DNA of 64,000 nucleotides from Rhizobium sp. RU36D. GTDB taxonomy: Bacteria; Pseudomonadota; Alphaproteobacteria; Rhizobiales; Rhizobiaceae. A model generated the notes under the pieces. That model was not told the origin of the DNA and did not search any database. It was given only the letters and a program-made list of their open reading frames with translations. Below are positions 14,531 to 49,075 of the stretch, piece by piece. The position numbers were made by a program, and so were the translations under genes. Numbering within the stretch: the stretch's first letter is position 1; every line of letters starts with the position of its first letter. The stretch covers positions 1-64,000 of the forward strand of contig NZ_FWXU01000003.1 in assembly GCF_900176345.1 (NCBI RefSeq), in the 5' to 3' direction.

Positions 14531-15169
14531 TCATTCCGTCGGTATTCTTGTCGTGCCGTAGAGCTTCAGGAATGACGCGACCGCCTTCCTGGCCCTGGCT
14601 GGAAATGTTTCCTTGCCCGGCCGGTCGCCGAGCAGCATGCGCACGTGAAGGTCCGAAACGATCAGGCCATAGAGCGATCGATAGGCCTCTTCCCCGTCAT
14701 TGAATCGCAAAAGCCCGTCCCGCTGCCCGGCATCCAGCAGCGCGCGTGCGCGGCGATCGATCTGCCGCCGCCCGCGCTCAAGCAGCAGCGTTCCGAGCTT
14801 CGATCCCTCGCGGCTGGTCTGGCCGATCGCCAGCCGGTTGAGCGCAAGCGACACATCACCTGCCAGAACCTCCAGCAGGTCCCGCGCGAACAATTCGAGA
14901 TGATCCACCAGCGTGTCCGGCGTCAGCCGCTCGCCGCTGCGCTCGAACGTCCTCACCTTGCTCGCCTGGTGCGAAATCATCGCAGACAGCAGACCATCGC
15001 GGTCGCCGAACCACTTGTAGAGGCTCTCCTTGGAGCAATTGGCAGCCCGCGCCAATCCGGCAGTCGTCAGCGCCTTGTCGCCACCATCGACAAGCAGACC
15101 CAGCGCCACGTCCAGAACCGCGTTCTGGCGTGGGGTGAAGTCGTGATCTGCAGTCGATTCGTGTTGCAC
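14531..15169 (-). CDS. TetR-family transcriptional regulator
   Basis: The N-terminal helix-turn-helix is clear: LTTAGLARAANCSKESLYKW followed by FGDRDGLL. A helical ligand-binding domain follows, and TetR-type C-terminal residues close the protein. I chose GTG 15169, because the longer open frame to 15301 has unnatural Arg/Cys-rich sequence; this gives 212 residues. A perfect ACCGTACGGT palindrome lies 26 bases upstream, suggesting autoregulation. It is followed on the same strand by ilvC after 66 bases, so read-through or local regulation is possible, though no direct link to branched-chain synthesis is shown. Confidence 0.85.
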   Translation of the reverse strand: MQHESTADHDFTPRQNAVLDVALGLLVDGGDKALTTAGLARAANCSKESLYKWFGDRDGLLSAMISHQASKVRTFERSGERLTPDTLVDHLELFARDLLEVLAGDVSLALNRLAIGQTSREGSKLGTLLLERGRRQIDRRARALLDAGQRDGLLRFNDGEEAYRSLYGLIVSDLHVRMLLGDRPGKETFPARARKAVASFLKLYGTTRIPTE

Positions 15170-15189
15170 TATCTTGCTCTCTGACGCGT

Positions 15190-15204
15190 ACCGTACCGTA
15201 CGGT
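15190..15204. promoter_or_regulatory. Probable TetR operator
   Basis: The sequence ACCGTACCGTACGGT contains the perfect palindrome ACCGTACGGT (15195-15204) and an extra CCGTA half-site. It lies just upstream of the TetR start and is a candidate autoregulatory site. Confidence 0.5.
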
Positions 15205-15429
15205 TCCTGCATTTTCTAAAGGCATCGCCCCTGCCCGTCAAGCCGAAAAAACGGGCACAACGAGGGTTTTCCAGCGGCCTGCAGCCCCCAACACGCCACA
15301 CTCACAGAAGCGTGACTACGTGGTGACAAAATAATTTTTTTATACAACAATTTTGGCTGCATGTAATTTACAAGCCACTGTTTTTGCATGCTAAATTTTT
15401 CAAGATCTCCAAAGAAAATCGATCAAATC

Positions 15430-15449
15430 ATCGAACCAAGCGGTTCGAT
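15430..15449. promoter_or_regulatory. Palindrome 1 upstream of the four-gene array
   Basis: ATCGAACC (15430-15437) and GGTTCGAT (15442-15449) are perfect arms around AAGC. The same 21-base sequence recurs at 15501 with one change. The region around it is AT-rich (about 15300-15420), with a TGTAATTTACA palindrome at 15362-15372. It is probably an operator for an unidentified regulator. Confidence 0.6.
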
Positions 15450-15500
15450 TGGCGCCTACCCCCTCTTGCCAAGCCGAAAAATTTGTCCCATTTCTAGCTC

Positions 15501-15520
15501 ATCGAACCAAGCAGTTCGAT
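15501..15520. promoter_or_regulatory. Palindrome 2 upstream of the four-gene array
   Basis: ATCGAAC (15501-15507) and GTTCGAT (15514-15520) flank CAAGCA. It is a near-identical copy of the site at 15430, centred 71 bases downstream, about seven helical turns. It ends 32 bases before the first start codon of the array, a position suited to repression or looping. Confidence 0.6.
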
Positions 15521-15552
15521 TGCATATCAACTAATCAACAGAGGCAATGACC

Positions 15553-15801
15553 ATGAAAAAGATCGCAGCAGCCACTCTCGTCGCCGTTCTCGCCGGCTCG
15601 TCCGCAGCCTTCGCCATCGAAGCCATTCCGGGCTCGCTCACCTACGGCGGCAGCAACGTTCAGCTTCAGAAGGCTCCGGCCGGTTCGAGCTTCGAACACG
15701 CCTTCATCACCAACAGCGGTGACCAGGCCATCGAGACCTACCGCGTCAACGCCGACAAGACCGTCACGCTGGTCACTCGCGACCACGTCGAAAACAACTA
15801 A
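15553..15801 (+). CDS. Small exported protein of unknown function, array copy 1
   Basis: The protein is 82 residues from ATG 15553. GAGG at 15541 is eight bases upstream, whereas the ATG at 15547 is too close, and the choice matches the lengths of the other copies. A signal peptide (KKIAAATLVAVLAGSSAAFA) is followed by a cysteine-free mature domain of about 61 residues: IEAIPGSLTYGG, NVQLQKAPAGSSFEHAFIT, IETYRVNADKTVTLVTR. It is the most divergent copy, with Ile-Glu-Ala after the signal and Asn-Ser at the variable site. It is first of four head-to-tail paralogues and lies directly after the paired palindromes. I do not recognise the family. Confidence 0.85.
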   Translation: MKKIAAATLVAVLAGSSAAFAIEAIPGSLTYGGSNVQLQKAPAGSSFEHAFITNSGDQAIETYRVNADKTVTLVTRDHVENN

Positions 15802-15834
15802 TGCCACTGGCACTCAAGTAAGGAGCATTTCCCC

Positions 15835-16083
15835 ATGAACAAGATCGCAGCAGCAACCCTCCTCGCCGTTCTCGCCGGCTCTTCCGCAGCCTTCGCTCTG
15901 GAACCCATCCCGGGCTCCCTGACCTACGGCGGCGCCAATGTCCAGCTTCAGAAGGCTCCCGCCGGCTCGAGCTTCGAACATGCCTTCATCACCAGCACCG
16001 GTGACCAGGCCGTCGAAACCTACCGCGTCAACGCCGACAAGACCGTCAGCCTCGTGACCCGCGCCCACGTCGAAAACAACTAA
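15835..16083 (+). CDS. Small exported protein of unknown function, array copy 2
   Basis: This is an 82-residue paralogue starting MNKIAAATLLAVLAGSSAAF. The mature part begins LEPIPGSLTYGGANVQLQKA and carries the invariant APAGSSFEHAFIT and ETYRVNADK motifs, ending RAHVENN. It starts 33 bases after copy 1, with AAGGAG before the ATG, so the array is probably one transcript. It shares the RAHVENN ending with copy 3, whereas copies 1 and 4 have RDH, indicating that duplication or gene conversion joined 2 and 3 most recently. Confidence 0.85.
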   Translation: MNKIAAATLLAVLAGSSAAFALEPIPGSLTYGGANVQLQKAPAGSSFEHAFITSTGDQAVETYRVNADKTVSLVTRAHVENN

Positions 16084-16114
16084 TCCCAACCTTCCCACAT
16101 AAGGAGACATCATC

Positions 16115-16363
16115 ATGAACAAGTTCGCAGCAGCCACCCTCCTCGCCGTTCTCGCCGGCTCGTCCGCAGCCTTCGCTCTGGAACCGATCCCAGGCTCGAT
16201 CACCTTCGGCGGCAACAACGTCCAGCTTCAGAAGGCCCCGGCCGGTTCGAGCTTCGAGCACGCCTTCATCACCAGCACCGGTGACCAGGCCGTCGAAACC
16301 TACCGCGTCAACGCCGACAAGTCCGTCAGCCTCGTCACCCGCGCCCACGTCGAAAACAACTAA
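16115..16363 (+). CDS. Small exported protein of unknown function, array copy 3
   Basis: This is an 82-residue paralogue preceded by AAGGAGACATCATC, the same leader block as copy 4 (AGGAGACATCATC). The signal peptide is nearly identical to copy 2. The mature region differs at SITFGGNN and DKSVS. Conservation of nucleotide as well as protein sequence between copies is high, consistent with recent duplication. It is predicted to be periplasmic or secreted; no catalytic motif or cysteine is visible. Confidence 0.85.
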   Translation: MNKFAAATLLAVLAGSSAAFALEPIPGSITFGGNNVQLQKAPAGSSFEHAFITSTGDQAVETYRVNADKSVSLVTRAHVENN

Positions 16364-16389
16364 TCCCCACACGAATAGGAGACATCATC

Positions 16390-16638
16390 ATGAACAAGTT
16401 CGCAGCAGCCACGCTGATCGCCGTCCTCGCCGGTTCGTCCGCAGCCTTCGCTCTGGAACCCATTCCGGGTTCGCTCACCTACGGCGGCGCCAACGTCCAG
16501 CTTCAGAAGGCTCCGGCCGGTTCGAGCTTCGAGCACGCCTTCATCACCAGCACCGGTGACCGCGCCATCGAAACCTACCGCGTCAACGCCGACAAGACCG
16601 TCACGCTGGTGACCCGCGATCATTCGGAATCCAACTGA
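16390..16638 (+). CDS. Small exported protein of unknown function, array copy 4
   Basis: This is an 82-residue paralogue, the last in the array, ending RDHSESN. It starts 26 bases after copy 3 with the same AGGAGACATCATC leader. TGDRAIETYRV replaces TGDQAVETYRV of copies 2 and 3, closer to copy 1. A strong terminator follows 32 bases downstream of its stop, closing the array. Confidence 0.85.
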   Translation: MNKFAAATLIAVLAGSSAAFALEPIPGSLTYGGANVQLQKAPAGSSFEHAFITSTGDRAIETYRVNADKTVTLVTRDHSESN

Positions 16639-16670
16639 TATTTCTCAGTTTTCGGACTTCCCGACCCAAG

Positions 16671-16702
16671 GCCCCGGAGTTTATCCGGGGCTTAAATTTT
16701 TT
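16671..16702 (+). terminator. Rho-independent terminator of the four-gene array
   Basis: GCCCCGGA (16671-16678) pairs with TCCGGGGC (16684-16691), followed by TTAAATTTTTT. Confidence 0.93.
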
Positions 16703-16793: not shown

Positions 16794-17165
16794 ATGTCGA
16801 AGCGTCTCATCGCCCTCGCCGCCCTCGGTCTTGCCCTGATCGGCAGCCCTGCACTTTCAGCCGAAAACCGCTGCGGCTGGCTTCATAATCCCACCCCAGG
16901 CAATCTCTGGCTCGATGACAGCGAAAGCACCTGGATCCTGATGTCCCAGGGCATGCCGGACGAGGCGCTGGGCATGGAGAACATCCCTGATTTTTCCGAG
17001 CGCGACTATGTGCGCACCAATGGCAATTACGGCTATGCCTGCGCCTGCATCGAAGTCGATACCGAGAGCCGTGATGGCATCGATCGCGTCGTCGCAGTCT
17101 ACTCCTTCAAGCAACTGAAGCTGTCGAAGTGCGAAAACGATCGCAACCTACCGAAGCCCGAATAA
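16794..17165 (+). CDS. DUF4087-family exported protein
   Basis: The 123-residue protein has a signal peptide ending SPALSA. The mature domain opens with ENRCGWLHNPTPGNLWLDDS and has STWILMSQG, YGYACACIEVD and a late Cys in LKLSKCENDR. The pattern matches DUF4087, whose function is unknown, and the cysteines suggest periplasmic disulphides. It stands alone between a terminator and the MarR-GNAT gene. Confidence 0.82.
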   Translation: MSKRLIALAALGLALIGSPALSAENRCGWLHNPTPGNLWLDDSESTWILMSQGMPDEALGMENIPDFSERDYVRTNGNYGYACACIEVDTESRDGIDRVVAVYSFKQLKLSKCENDRNLPKPE

Positions 17166-17209: not shown

Positions 17210-17251
17210 TTTTCCATCCTTATGCTCCTGACGAGGCGCAGGGAGTTCGAT

Positions 17252-18178
17252 ATGGAATCAACGGATCTGGAGACTGTGGAAGCGATGCGAGCCTTCAACC
17301 GCTTTTACACCAATCGGCTTGGTGTTCTGGGCCAGGGTTATCTCGGCAGCGGATACAATCTGACGGAGGCTCGCATCCTCTACGAAATTGGCGCCCGGCG
17401 CAGTGTGGCGGCGGTCGCACTGATCCGTGAATTGCAGCTGGATGCGGCCTATCTGAGCCGCATCATCAAGCGGTTTCGTGCCGCCGGCCTGATCGAAACG
17501 ACGCCGGACCCCCAGGACAAGCGCAGCCAGATCATCACCCCCACGGACCACGGCATCAAAGAATTCGAAAAGCTTGGCGCGGCATCGAGGGTTGAGCTTG
17601 CCGCCATGGTCGACAACCTTGGCCAGTCCGACCGGGAGAGGTTGAAGGCGGCCTTTTCCACCATCCGCCTGCTTCTGGATCCGTCAGCAAGCCGCAACGA
17701 GCCTGCCGTCCTTAGGCCACACAGGCCGGGCGATCTCGGCTGGATCGTTCAGTCCCAAGCAGAGTTCTATACGGCCGCTTTCGGCTGGAACAGCCGTTTC
17801 GAAGCCCTCGTCGCCGAGATCGCAGGCAAGTTCCTGGCCAATTTCGATCCGGCACGGGAGTTCTGCTGGATCGCCGAACGCGGCGGCACGCGCGTCGGGT
17901 CGGCGCTGATCATGGATGGCGGCGAAGGAATCGCCAAGCTTCGCCTGCTCTATGTCGACGAGCAGGCCCGCGGTCTTGGTCTCGGGCGCCTGTTGGTTGA
18001 GGAATGCATCCGCTTTTCACGCGCGTCCGGTTATCGAAAACTGACGCTCTGGACCAACGACATCCTGCATGCGGCGCGGCATATCTATGTGAAGGCCGGC
18101 TTCGTGCTGGAAGCGGAAGAACCGCATACGCTGTTCGGCCCACAGGAAAACGGCCAGACATGGACCCTTACCCTGTGA
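17252..18178 (+). CDS. MarR regulator fused to a GNAT acetyltransferase
   Basis: The 308-residue protein starts at ATG 17252 after AGGGAG. Residues 1 to about 140 are a MarR winged helix (LTEARILYEIGARR, LDAAYLSRIIKRFRAAGLIE, PDPQDKRSQIITPTDHG). Residues from about 155 to the end are a GNAT domain with the acetyl-CoA loop in RLLYVDEQARGLGLGRLLVE and the C-terminal LWTNDILHAARHIYVKAGF. Such MarR-GNAT fusions are a known architecture; the acetylated substrate is usually unknown. A palindromic site pair lies in its promoter. Confidence 0.9.
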   Translation: MESTDLETVEAMRAFNRFYTNRLGVLGQGYLGSGYNLTEARILYEIGARRSVAAVALIRELQLDAAYLSRIIKRFRAAGLIETTPDPQDKRSQIITPTDHGIKEFEKLGAASRVELAAMVDNLGQSDRERLKAAFSTIRLLLDPSASRNEPAVLRPHRPGDLGWIVQSQAEFYTAAFGWNSRFEALVAEIAGKFLANFDPAREFCWIAERGGTRVGSALIMDGGEGIAKLRLLYVDEQARGLGLGRLLVEECIRFSRASGYRKLTLWTNDILHAARHIYVKAGFVLEAEEPHTLFGPQENGQTWTLTL

Positions 18179-34486: not shown

Positions 34487-34547
34487 GCCTCTTCCCGTCC
34501 GTCATCCTGGATGTTTTGATGTGGGCTAATAGCCCGGTTCAGGCCAT

Positions 34548-34571
34548 AAAAAAAGGCTCCCTGGGGAGCCT
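34548..34571 (-). terminator. Attenuator terminator upstream of ilvI
   Basis: On the minus strand AGGCTCCC pairs with GGGAGCCT around CA, followed by seven T (34554-34548 region). It lies between the leader peptide and the ilvI start, as in translational-attenuation systems. Confidence 0.9.
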
Positions 34572-34605
34572 GTTTGTCTGCGCATGGGTGGCTATCGCCG
34601 GATGG

Positions 34606-34662
34606 TTACACCATCCTGCCCATGCGCCATCCCACCACGATAAGTGCCTTAAGATTTTTCAT
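34606..34662 (-). CDS. ilvI leader peptide (attenuator)
   Basis: The 18-codon frame MKNLKALIVVGWRMGRMV has Leu, Leu, Ile, Val, Val in codons 4-10 (Lys and Ala intervene) and a final Val. This clustering of branched-chain codons is expected of an ilv control peptide. Structures follow: GCGCATGGG within the leader pairs with CCCATGCGC at about 34577-34586, GGATGGT pairs with ACCATCC across the stop, and GATAGCCAC downstream can alternatively pair with GTGGCTATC upstream of the leader ATG. The terminator at 34548-34571 completes the device. Confidence 0.85.
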   Translation of the reverse strand: MKNLKALIVVGWRMGRMV

Positions 34663-48659: not shown

Positions 48660-48729
48660 TGAGCGCCGCGGACCAGCCGGTAAAGGTTTCAAGACACCCC
48701 TTTTCATCCCTGCGCTAAACACCTATATG

Positions 48730-49075
48730 AGGAGTGCCGGGGCTTGCTCCGGCTATGGCAATAAACGGTCGGTGTAATAAACCTATTGGACCCGGGGGCG
48801 GTACCCGGCGCCTCCACCAAAAACCGGTCGGGCTTCTCGCATGGGATGACCGGCTTTTGATGGGGGCGAAATAGGATCGACAAGGGCGTAAAGATCGAAC
48901 TTTTGCTCGGCATGATACCGCCGTTATCGGGTCACAAGTGTAGTTGCAAACGACAACAACGCTAAGGAATACGCTCTCGCTGCCTAATGGCGGTGCGGGA
49001 ATTCCGCTCTAAGTCCTCTAGGTTAGCCCCTTGAGGCGGGGTCCGAAGGCACCTGGCAACAGAAGCCTTCACCTT
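48730..49075 (+). ncRNA. ssrA: tmRNA, two-piece permuted (alphaproteobacterial)
   Basis: The acceptor piece comes first and ends CGCCTCCACCA at 48819. The mRNA-like piece starts GGGGGCG at 48862, and these seven bases pair with CGCCTCC of the acceptor end, proving the permuted two-piece architecture. About 42 bases between are removed. The tag frame starts with GCA at 48946 and encodes ANDNNAKEYALAA to TAA at 48985-48987. Outer ends (48730 and 49075) are estimated; a GAAGGC/GCCTTC hairpin lies at 49046-49071. It rescues stalled ribosomes. Its adaptor gene sspB follows. Confidence 0.93.

What the first reader, a model, noticed from the sequence alone, without database searches (positions are those of the whole stretch)
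15430..16702. Four tandem paralogous exported proteins behind two matching palindromes
Four 82-residue signal-peptide proteins with nearly identical 61-residue, cysteine-free mature domains lie head to tail (33, 31 and 26 bases apart) with one terminator. Upstream, a 21-base palindromic sequence occurs twice, 71 bases apart (about seven helical turns), the second copy 32 bases before the first start. I know no family with the core APAGSSFEHAFIT/ETYRVNADK. Dose amplification by tandem copying plus a dedicated operator suggests an inducible envelope or secreted factor.
Basis: partly seen in the sequence, partly recalled or inferred. Interest (0 to 1): 0.8.

Follow-up and report, generated by a model that had tools for sequence, protein, structure and literature searches.

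The report
Efflux-regulator-controlled tandem exported-protein array
A soil bacterium carries four near-identical genes for a small exported protein behind a two-operator promoter whose operators match those of a drug-efflux regulator (EmrR), so a protein of unknown function is probably made together with the pump when the cell meets plant-type toxins.

Summary
In detail: four tandem exported proteins, a terminator-like hairpin, two matching palindromes 71 bp apart. The protein ("FAM") matches no Pfam, NCBIfam or PADLOC model and no solved fold at E<=0.001. Its genome holds ten copies: this array, a second array of four without the palindromes, and two single genes. The palindrome pair is a conserved module: 27 of 63 genus genomes carry it, all 27 among the 43 with FAM. 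Of 36 module places 29 were examined; all 27 with usable downstream DNA have a FAM-type gene 23-203 bp downstream, some very diverged. The same ATCGAAC-N6-GTTCGAT element (at most 2 mismatches of 14) lies between emrA and a divergent TetR gene in 28 of 28 genomes read, the arrangement of luteolin-inducible EmrAB-EmrR of Sinorhizobium meliloti. The TetR beside the array has a different conserved operator. So the array is most likely EmrR-repressed and induced together with EmrAB by phenolic compounds. Arrays recur, also in single-contig genomes. What the protein does in the envelope is unknown; a protective role is inference.

The parts
15430..15449 (.). operator site A, ATCGAACC-N4-GGTTCGAT, ends 16 bases upstream of the inferred -35
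   Evidence: a pair of such sites 70-72 bp apart in 23 of 109 upstream regions scored
15466..15494 (+). inferred promoter: TTGCCA-N17-CATTTC, bracketed by the two sites (relatives read TTGyaa-N17-CAAATA)
   Evidence: phylogenetic footprint; letters checked; not picked by the consensus scan, so inference
15501..15520 (.). operator site B, at the inferred transcription start
15553..15801 (+). FAM gene 1, 82 aa with signal peptide (alternative ATG at 15547)
15835..16083 (+). FAM gene 2, 82 aa
16115..16363 (+). FAM gene 3, 82 aa
16390..16638 (+). FAM gene 4, 82 aa
16669..16693 (+). terminator-like hairpin (10 pairs) followed by a T-run
14531..15169 (-). adjacent divergent TetR (AefR-like C-terminal domain); not the likely regulator of the array
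15188..15206 (.). separate palindromic operator of the adjacent TetR (GTACCGTACCGTACGGTTC)
   Evidence: GTACCGTAC plus a GTACGG arm in 18 of 18 aligned tetR upstream regions, with one- or two-base variants in L057, L058, L082 and the window

Best explanation
The array is an output of the EmrR (TetR-family) efflux regulon. Two EmrR-type operators bracket the promoter, one upstream of -35 and one at the start site. EmrR bound to both blocks transcription. A pump substrate (in S. meliloti a flavonoid such as luteolin) releases EmrR, so the EmrAB pump and the four-gene transcript are made together. The four copies raise the dose of one exported, cysteine-free, small protein with a predicted beta-meander core. 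Shown here: array, module, its conservation, the shared element between emrA and emrR, recurrent amplification. Inferred: that EmrR itself binds, that it represses, the inducer, export by the Sec route, and that the protein protects the envelope or periplasm while toxic phenolics are pumped out (protective role about 0.35).
For: In 11 array-bearing genomes, 44 sites match ATCGAAC-N6-GTTCGAT with 0-1 mismatch: 30 at arrays, 1 at a contig end that looks like a cut array, 6 (in 5 genomes) beside the TetR gene of an emrAB locus, 7 elsewhere (sorted by me from coordinates). About 3.9 are expected by chance at 62% GC, an assumed value; the reversed control pattern gave 1. One EmrR-like TetR above the cut-off per genome in 12 of 12 (E<=1e-25) and 17 of 18 (E<=1e-35). 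In the 28 distinct genomes with it, emrA is divergent in 28 of 28 and the space between holds the element with at most 2 mismatches in 28 of 28 (first seen); chance per 340 bases about 0.001. In the window's own genome this is C30:342921-342945. Pump identity, own genome: EmrB TIGR00711 445 bits, cut-off 230; HlyD domains in EmrA, whose TIGR00998 score of 253 is below its 390.8 cut-off; TetR_N plus TetR_C_7. Genus: module in 27 of 63 genomes, all 27 among the 43 with FAM (Fisher 5e-7, ignoring relatedness). Adjacent TetR disfavoured by its own operator and by its presence next to ilvC in 14 of 14 genomes, six of which have neither FAM nor the box there. Literature (passages): SMc03167-SMc03169 respond to luteolin without nod boxes (PMC5793154); luteolin interferes with EmrR binding to the emrAB region (PMC6780985, citing Rossbach 2014).
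Against: No binding or expression data. The S. meliloti EmrR sequence was not compared here; orthology rests on gene arrangement and the recalled equation EmrR = SMc03169. Sites at emrR are mostly compound (two overlapping sites offset 5 bp; exact form in 19 of 28), unlike the single palindromes at the array. Other arrays lack the sites: the second own array (L010), G061 (L028/L049), G081 (L048) and G045 (L037/L052), as do the own single genes, so EmrR control is not a general trait of the family. 16 of 43 FAM genomes in the genus lack the strict module. Seven unexamined sites remain. Against a protective role: deleting emrAB did not change S. meliloti's sensitivity to several toxic compounds (PMC6780985 passage). 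No function is shown for the protein.
Confidence: 0.78

Rival explanations
1. The divergent TetR next door (14531-15169) is the regulator of the array.
For: Adjacent and divergent, the usual TetR layout; found beside FAM in 17 of the 80 genome-contig loci.
Against: Its own promoter carries a different conserved palindrome (18 of 18). It sits by ilvC in 14 of 14 genomes, of which six lack FAM and the box there. Second arrays at other loci (L060, L062, L074, L084) have the boxes without this TetR in the held DNA.
Confidence: 0.06
2. EmrR activates the array (site A at about -60 from the inferred start) instead of repressing it, or one site does each.
For: Site A lies upstream of -35 where activators bind; two sites at a fixed 70-72 bp spacing.
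Against: Site B covers the inferred start; efflux TetR proteins, including S. meliloti EmrR, are described as repressors (PMC6780985 passages).
Confidence: 0.1
3. The palindrome works as RNA: a 5' hairpin that stabilises the mRNA.
For: Site B would form a 7-pair hairpin at the 5' end of the transcript.
Against: Folding is not clearly better than shuffles (z -0.96; 33 of 200 fold as well). Site A lies upstream of the inferred promoter, and the same element sits between emrA and emrR.
Confidence: 0.04
4. The exported proteins are secreted peptides acting on neighbours or hosts (antimicrobial or signalling) rather than envelope protectants, and EmrR only times their release.
For: Arrays under the same module carry strongly diverged cargo behind a similar signal peptide (L225, L233, L241, L240); copies are amplified.
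Against: No cysteines in the window proteins; the FAM core is conserved across genera; some relatives carry lipoprotein signals (LPAM_1 in 3 of 46), which points to the envelope; no PADLOC match. No immunity gene was noticed, but none was searched for.
Confidence: 0.15
5. Tandem copies are an assembly artefact.
For: In 14 of the 80 genome-contig loci a FAM gene lies within 700 bases of a contig edge.
Against: The window's copies differ by 8-15% in DNA from the second copy; single-contig genomes hold 11 and 10 copies in two arrays each (G663 and G707).
Confidence: 0.01

Closest known systems
EmrAB-EmrR flavonoid-inducible efflux system of Sinorhizobium meliloti (SMc03167-SMc03169)
   Same: MFS pump plus adaptor controlled by a TetR repressor; repression relieved by flavonoids in S. 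meliloti (PMC6780985 and PMC5793154 passages; Rossbach 2014 only as cited there)
   Different: No tandem exported-protein array is mentioned among its targets in the passages read; here the element also heads one or two arrays
RmrAB of Rhizobium etli and FrrA-FreCAB of Bradyrhizobium japonicum
   Same: Efflux pumps with TetR regulators and flavonoid response (passages)
   Different: Other pumps or pump families; not tested for this box
Small periplasmic stress proteins of enterobacteria (DUF1471 family such as BhsA and YhcN; Spy) - recalled
   Same: Works-like comparison only: small exported proteins raised by envelope or xenobiotic stress
   Different: No DUF1471 match among the window proteins or 46 relatives; predicted beta strands, not the all-helical fold recalled for Spy

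Membership tests
EmrR (TetR) regulon | TetR-type regulator divergent from emrA-emrB in the same genome | tested here: met
   Own genome L155: emrB, emrA, divergent TetR; Pfam and NCBIfam. EmrA is below its NCBIfam cut-off. emrA divergent in 28 of 28 genomes
EmrR (TetR) regulon | Target promoter carries the element found between emrA and emrR | tested here: met
   ATCGAAC-N6-GTTCGAT at the array and, with at most 2 mismatches, between emrA and the TetR gene in 28 of 28
EmrR (TetR) regulon | Regulator protein binds the target and is released by flavonoids | not testable with these tools
   Needs gel shift and reporters
EmrR of S. meliloti (SMc03169) | Sequence orthology to the named protein | not tested
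   S. meliloti chromosome not fetched; the locus tags are cited in PMC5793154 and PMC2912261
Regulon of the adjacent TetR | Its conserved operator occurs at the array promoter | tested here: not met
   GTACCGTACGGTAC lies at the tetR promoter, not at sites A and B
Known Pfam, NCBIfam or PADLOC family for the exported protein | Match above curated cut-off | tested here: not met
   (only a lipoprotein attachment site, 3 of 46); PHROGs best E 0.041, unknown function
Known fold in the PDB | Significant structural match | tested here: inconclusive
   Model mean pLDDT 78 (blocks 82-92 from residue 21 to 80), three strands; 0 PDB matches at E<=0.001; small model

The most novel reading that the evidence does not exclude
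The two-operator EmrR promoter is a portable expression cassette that repeatedly captures and tandemly amplifies small exported proteins, whose mature parts diverge while signal peptide and promoter stay. Copy number would then act as an evolvable dose control of a new periplasmic arm of plant-toxin resistance that works beside the EmrAB pump.
Probability: 0.35. Interest if true: 0.75.

Novelty: new variant of a known kind. Interest (0 to 1): 0.6.

Why it matters
Efflux regulons are usually read as pump plus regulator. Here comparative genomics ties an exported-protein family without a model, repeatedly amplified, to a flavonoid-type efflux regulator by a 71-bp two-operator promoter. That turns a gene of unknown function into a testable part of how rhizobia meet plant phenolics. 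Loss of S. meliloti EmrR is reported to weaken nodulation and root attachment while loss of the pump is not (passages in PMC6780985 and PMC12095868), which suggests outputs beyond the pump; arrays like this are candidates in the species that have them.

Tried and rejected
Profile and fold searches for the exported protein gave nothing usable: Pfam, NCBIfam, PADLOC and PHROGs, PDB sequences (best E 1.5), PDB folds.

The adjacent TetR as regulator was taken seriously after and dropped. An RNA hairpin role was tested and not favoured. Assembly artefact was rejected.

The exact double palindrome was too strict for a survey: 1 of 297 family genomes. The relaxed form gave 3 of 394 and 27 of 63 in the genus.

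Literature: nine text searches were aimed at EmrR and similar regulators. Only asked for a palindrome with EmrR and S. meliloti, and it found 0 papers. No text search was aimed at the exported family, which has no name; that it is undescribed rests on the profile searches alone. Passages were read in PMC6780985, PMC4990936, PMC12095868, PMC8581550, PMC4070704, PMC4136779, PMC5793154, PMC2912261 and PMC4486848; no paper was read whole. Rossbach 2014 and Santos 2014 themselves were not read, so whether they list such a target is unknown.

Selection to note: the 11 genomes were chosen because their arrays had an exact site. The 18 mixed genomes with and without one; one (G123) was already in the first set and one (G147) had no match. 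The search for related loci kept 80 of 101 loci. In one search, 3 of 112 loci had no upstream DNA, several others are cut inside arrays, and two places are held twice (L028/L049, L037/L052). One search used only modules with 71-bp spacing and left out L065, L082 and L088. Seven of 36 module places were not held and not examined. One search scored at most 22 candidates per genome, so its 3 of 249 is a lower bound. The seven other sites were not examined, nor were the upstream regions of the plasmid hits.

Full report
WHAT IS THERE. The four genes, spacings, terminator-like hairpin and two palindromes are as described. The first gene has a second in-frame ATG at 15547. The mature parts are 61 residues, acidic (predicted pI 5.0-5.5) and free of cysteine; the signal peptide was judged by eye. 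I call the family FAM.

THE FAMILY. No Pfam, NCBIfam or PADLOC model matches the window proteins above a cut-off, and none covers the family in 46 relatives (where 3 members match a lipoprotein attachment site). AlphaFold gives a three-strand beta meander, mean pLDDT 78, 82-92 per block from residue 21 to 80. Foldseek against the PDB gives no match at E<=0.001. FAM was found in 22 of 121 genomes of the family; in 3 of 249 genomes of the order, all three in the window's own family (at most 22 candidates scored per genome, so a lower bound); and in 156 plasmid records, all of Rhizobium, Ensifer, Sinorhizobium and related genera. A Chelativorans contig also carries one (L127). The own genome has ten copies: the window's four, four on C18 between a Ppx/GppA gene and a phytase-like gene, one on C54 and a lipoprotein-like one on C25.

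TANDEM ARRAYS RECUR. Of 80 genome-contig loci, 26 hold two or more copies, up to seven head to tail (Peteryoungia aggregata, L062); several genomes have two arrays. In the genus FAM occurs in 43 of 63 genomes, with 11 copies in the one-contig genome G663 and 10 in the one-contig genome G707, in two arrays each. In 14 of 80 loci a FAM gene lies within 700 bases of a contig edge, so counts are minima. In a codon tree the window's four copies form one clade (support 0.998). In the Peteryoungia-Allorhizobium group the first gene is orthologous between arrays and species, while the downstream copies form a separate group in which copies of different arrays and genomes partly mix, with low supports. 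This fits repeated local amplification or gene conversion, but does not prove either.

THE MODULE. Of 109 upstream regions scored, 23 have a best match of at most 2 mismatches (of 14), and all 23 have their second-best match 70-72 bp away, 71 in 20 of them; the second match itself is weak in L111 (4 mismatches) and L088 (3). All other regions have 4 or more mismatches. Over 18 distinct modules with 71-bp spacing, half-sites are 92% and 94% identical, their 6-base centres 65% and 63%, the spacer 62%, the flanks 43% and 38%. The spacer keeps TTG...CCAAAT, read as -35 and -10; site A ends 16 bases upstream of -35 in the window and site B begins at the inferred start. A relaxed two-site pattern occurs in 3 of 394 family genomes, all of the own genus, and in 27 of 63 genus genomes at 36 places. 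All 27 genomes hold FAM. Twenty-nine of the 36 places were held: 27 with usable downstream DNA all have a FAM-type gene 23-203 bp downstream, on one side only; two are cut by contig ends. In three (L225, L233, L241) the match is weak and probably rests largely on the signal peptide; those arrays encode diverged exported proteins.

THE REGULATOR. In 11 array genomes the 44 sites with 0-1 mismatch fall at arrays (30, plus 1 at a contig end), at one other recurring place (6, in 5 genomes) and elsewhere (7; about 3.9 expected at an assumed 62% GC). The recurring place lies between an EmrA-like gene, followed by an EmrB-like gene, and a divergent TetR gene. A search for that TetR protein found one match per genome in 12 of 12 and 17 of 18 genomes. 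In the 28 distinct genomes with it, emrA is divergent in 28 of 28 and the space between holds the element with at most 2 mismatches in 28 of 28. In 19 of 28 it is exactly TCGAACTGAACCGTTCGGTTCGAT, two overlapping sites offset by 5 bp, and in 10 of 28 there is a second site about 60 bp away. The own genome has it at C30:342921-342945.

THE NEIGHBOURING TETR IS NOT IT. The divergent TetR at 14531-15169 is found beside FAM in 17 of 80 loci, but its own promoter has a different conserved palindrome in 18 of 18 regions. It accompanies ilvC in 14 of 14 genomes. At that locus FAM and the box appear together in six (in two, G138 and G148, FAM lies further downstream, after other sequence), both are absent in six, one contig starts with only the boxes left, and one starts too close to tell.

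LITERATURE. From passages only: S. [quoted passage not shown] an EmrR deletion also reduces motility, biofilm and root attachment (PMC12095868). SMc03167-SMc03169 respond to luteolin without nod boxes (PMC5793154). SMc03167 and SMc03168 rise about 41-fold in a tolC mutant (PMC2912261). In S. fredii a different TetR-efflux operon, said not to be orthologous, is repressed by genistein (PMC4990936). That EmrR is SMc03169 is recalled; the S. meliloti sequence was not compared.

MECHANISM. Most likely EmrR represses the array through both sites and is released by pump substrates, so pump and exported protein rise together. Regulation by this TetR is well supported by comparative evidence; repression, inducer and protective function are inference. 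The array proteins could be periplasmic buffers or shields against phenolics; secreted peptides remain possible.

VERDICT. Real and conserved; a new extension of a known kind of efflux regulon around a protein of unknown function that matches no curated family model searched.

Noticed in passing
L010:3975-5086 (own genome C18, minus strand): A second tandem array of four FAM genes between a Ppx/GppA exopolyphosphatase gene and a phytase-like gene, without the EmrR-type sites; its regulator is unknown.
   Followed up: partly
window 14531-15206: TetR next to ilvC, with its own conserved palindrome GTACCGTACGGTAC, is present in all 14 genomes searched: an uncharacterised conserved regulator.
   Followed up: partly
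L225, L233, L240, L241: Arrays under the same two-site module encode other exported protein types (EPTNGP... forms) with a similar signal peptide.
   Followed up: partly
L201:2421-2700: In G148 a single EmrR-type box precedes another short exported-looking reading frame, with a FAM gene next.
   Followed up: no
G121:C2:249466 and G122:C17:112056: The same one-mismatch site (ATCGATCCGGCCCGTTCGAT) occurs in two related genomes away from arrays and emrR; a possible third target or conserved coding sequence.
   Followed up: no
L089: A FAM gene sits on a contig labelled as a Candidatus Roizmanbacteria MAG; probably a rhizobial contig in the wrong bin.
   Followed up: no
window 16794-17165: DUF4087 exported protein directly after the array terminator; a DUF4087 gene is found near FAM in 11 of 80 loci.
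   Followed up: partly
window 17222-18178: MarR-type DNA-binding domain fused to a GNAT acetyltransferase domain.
   Followed up: no
window 34538-34660 and 48697-49073: Rfam matches: Atu_C8 sRNA (minus strand) and alphaproteobacterial tmRNA.
   Followed up: no
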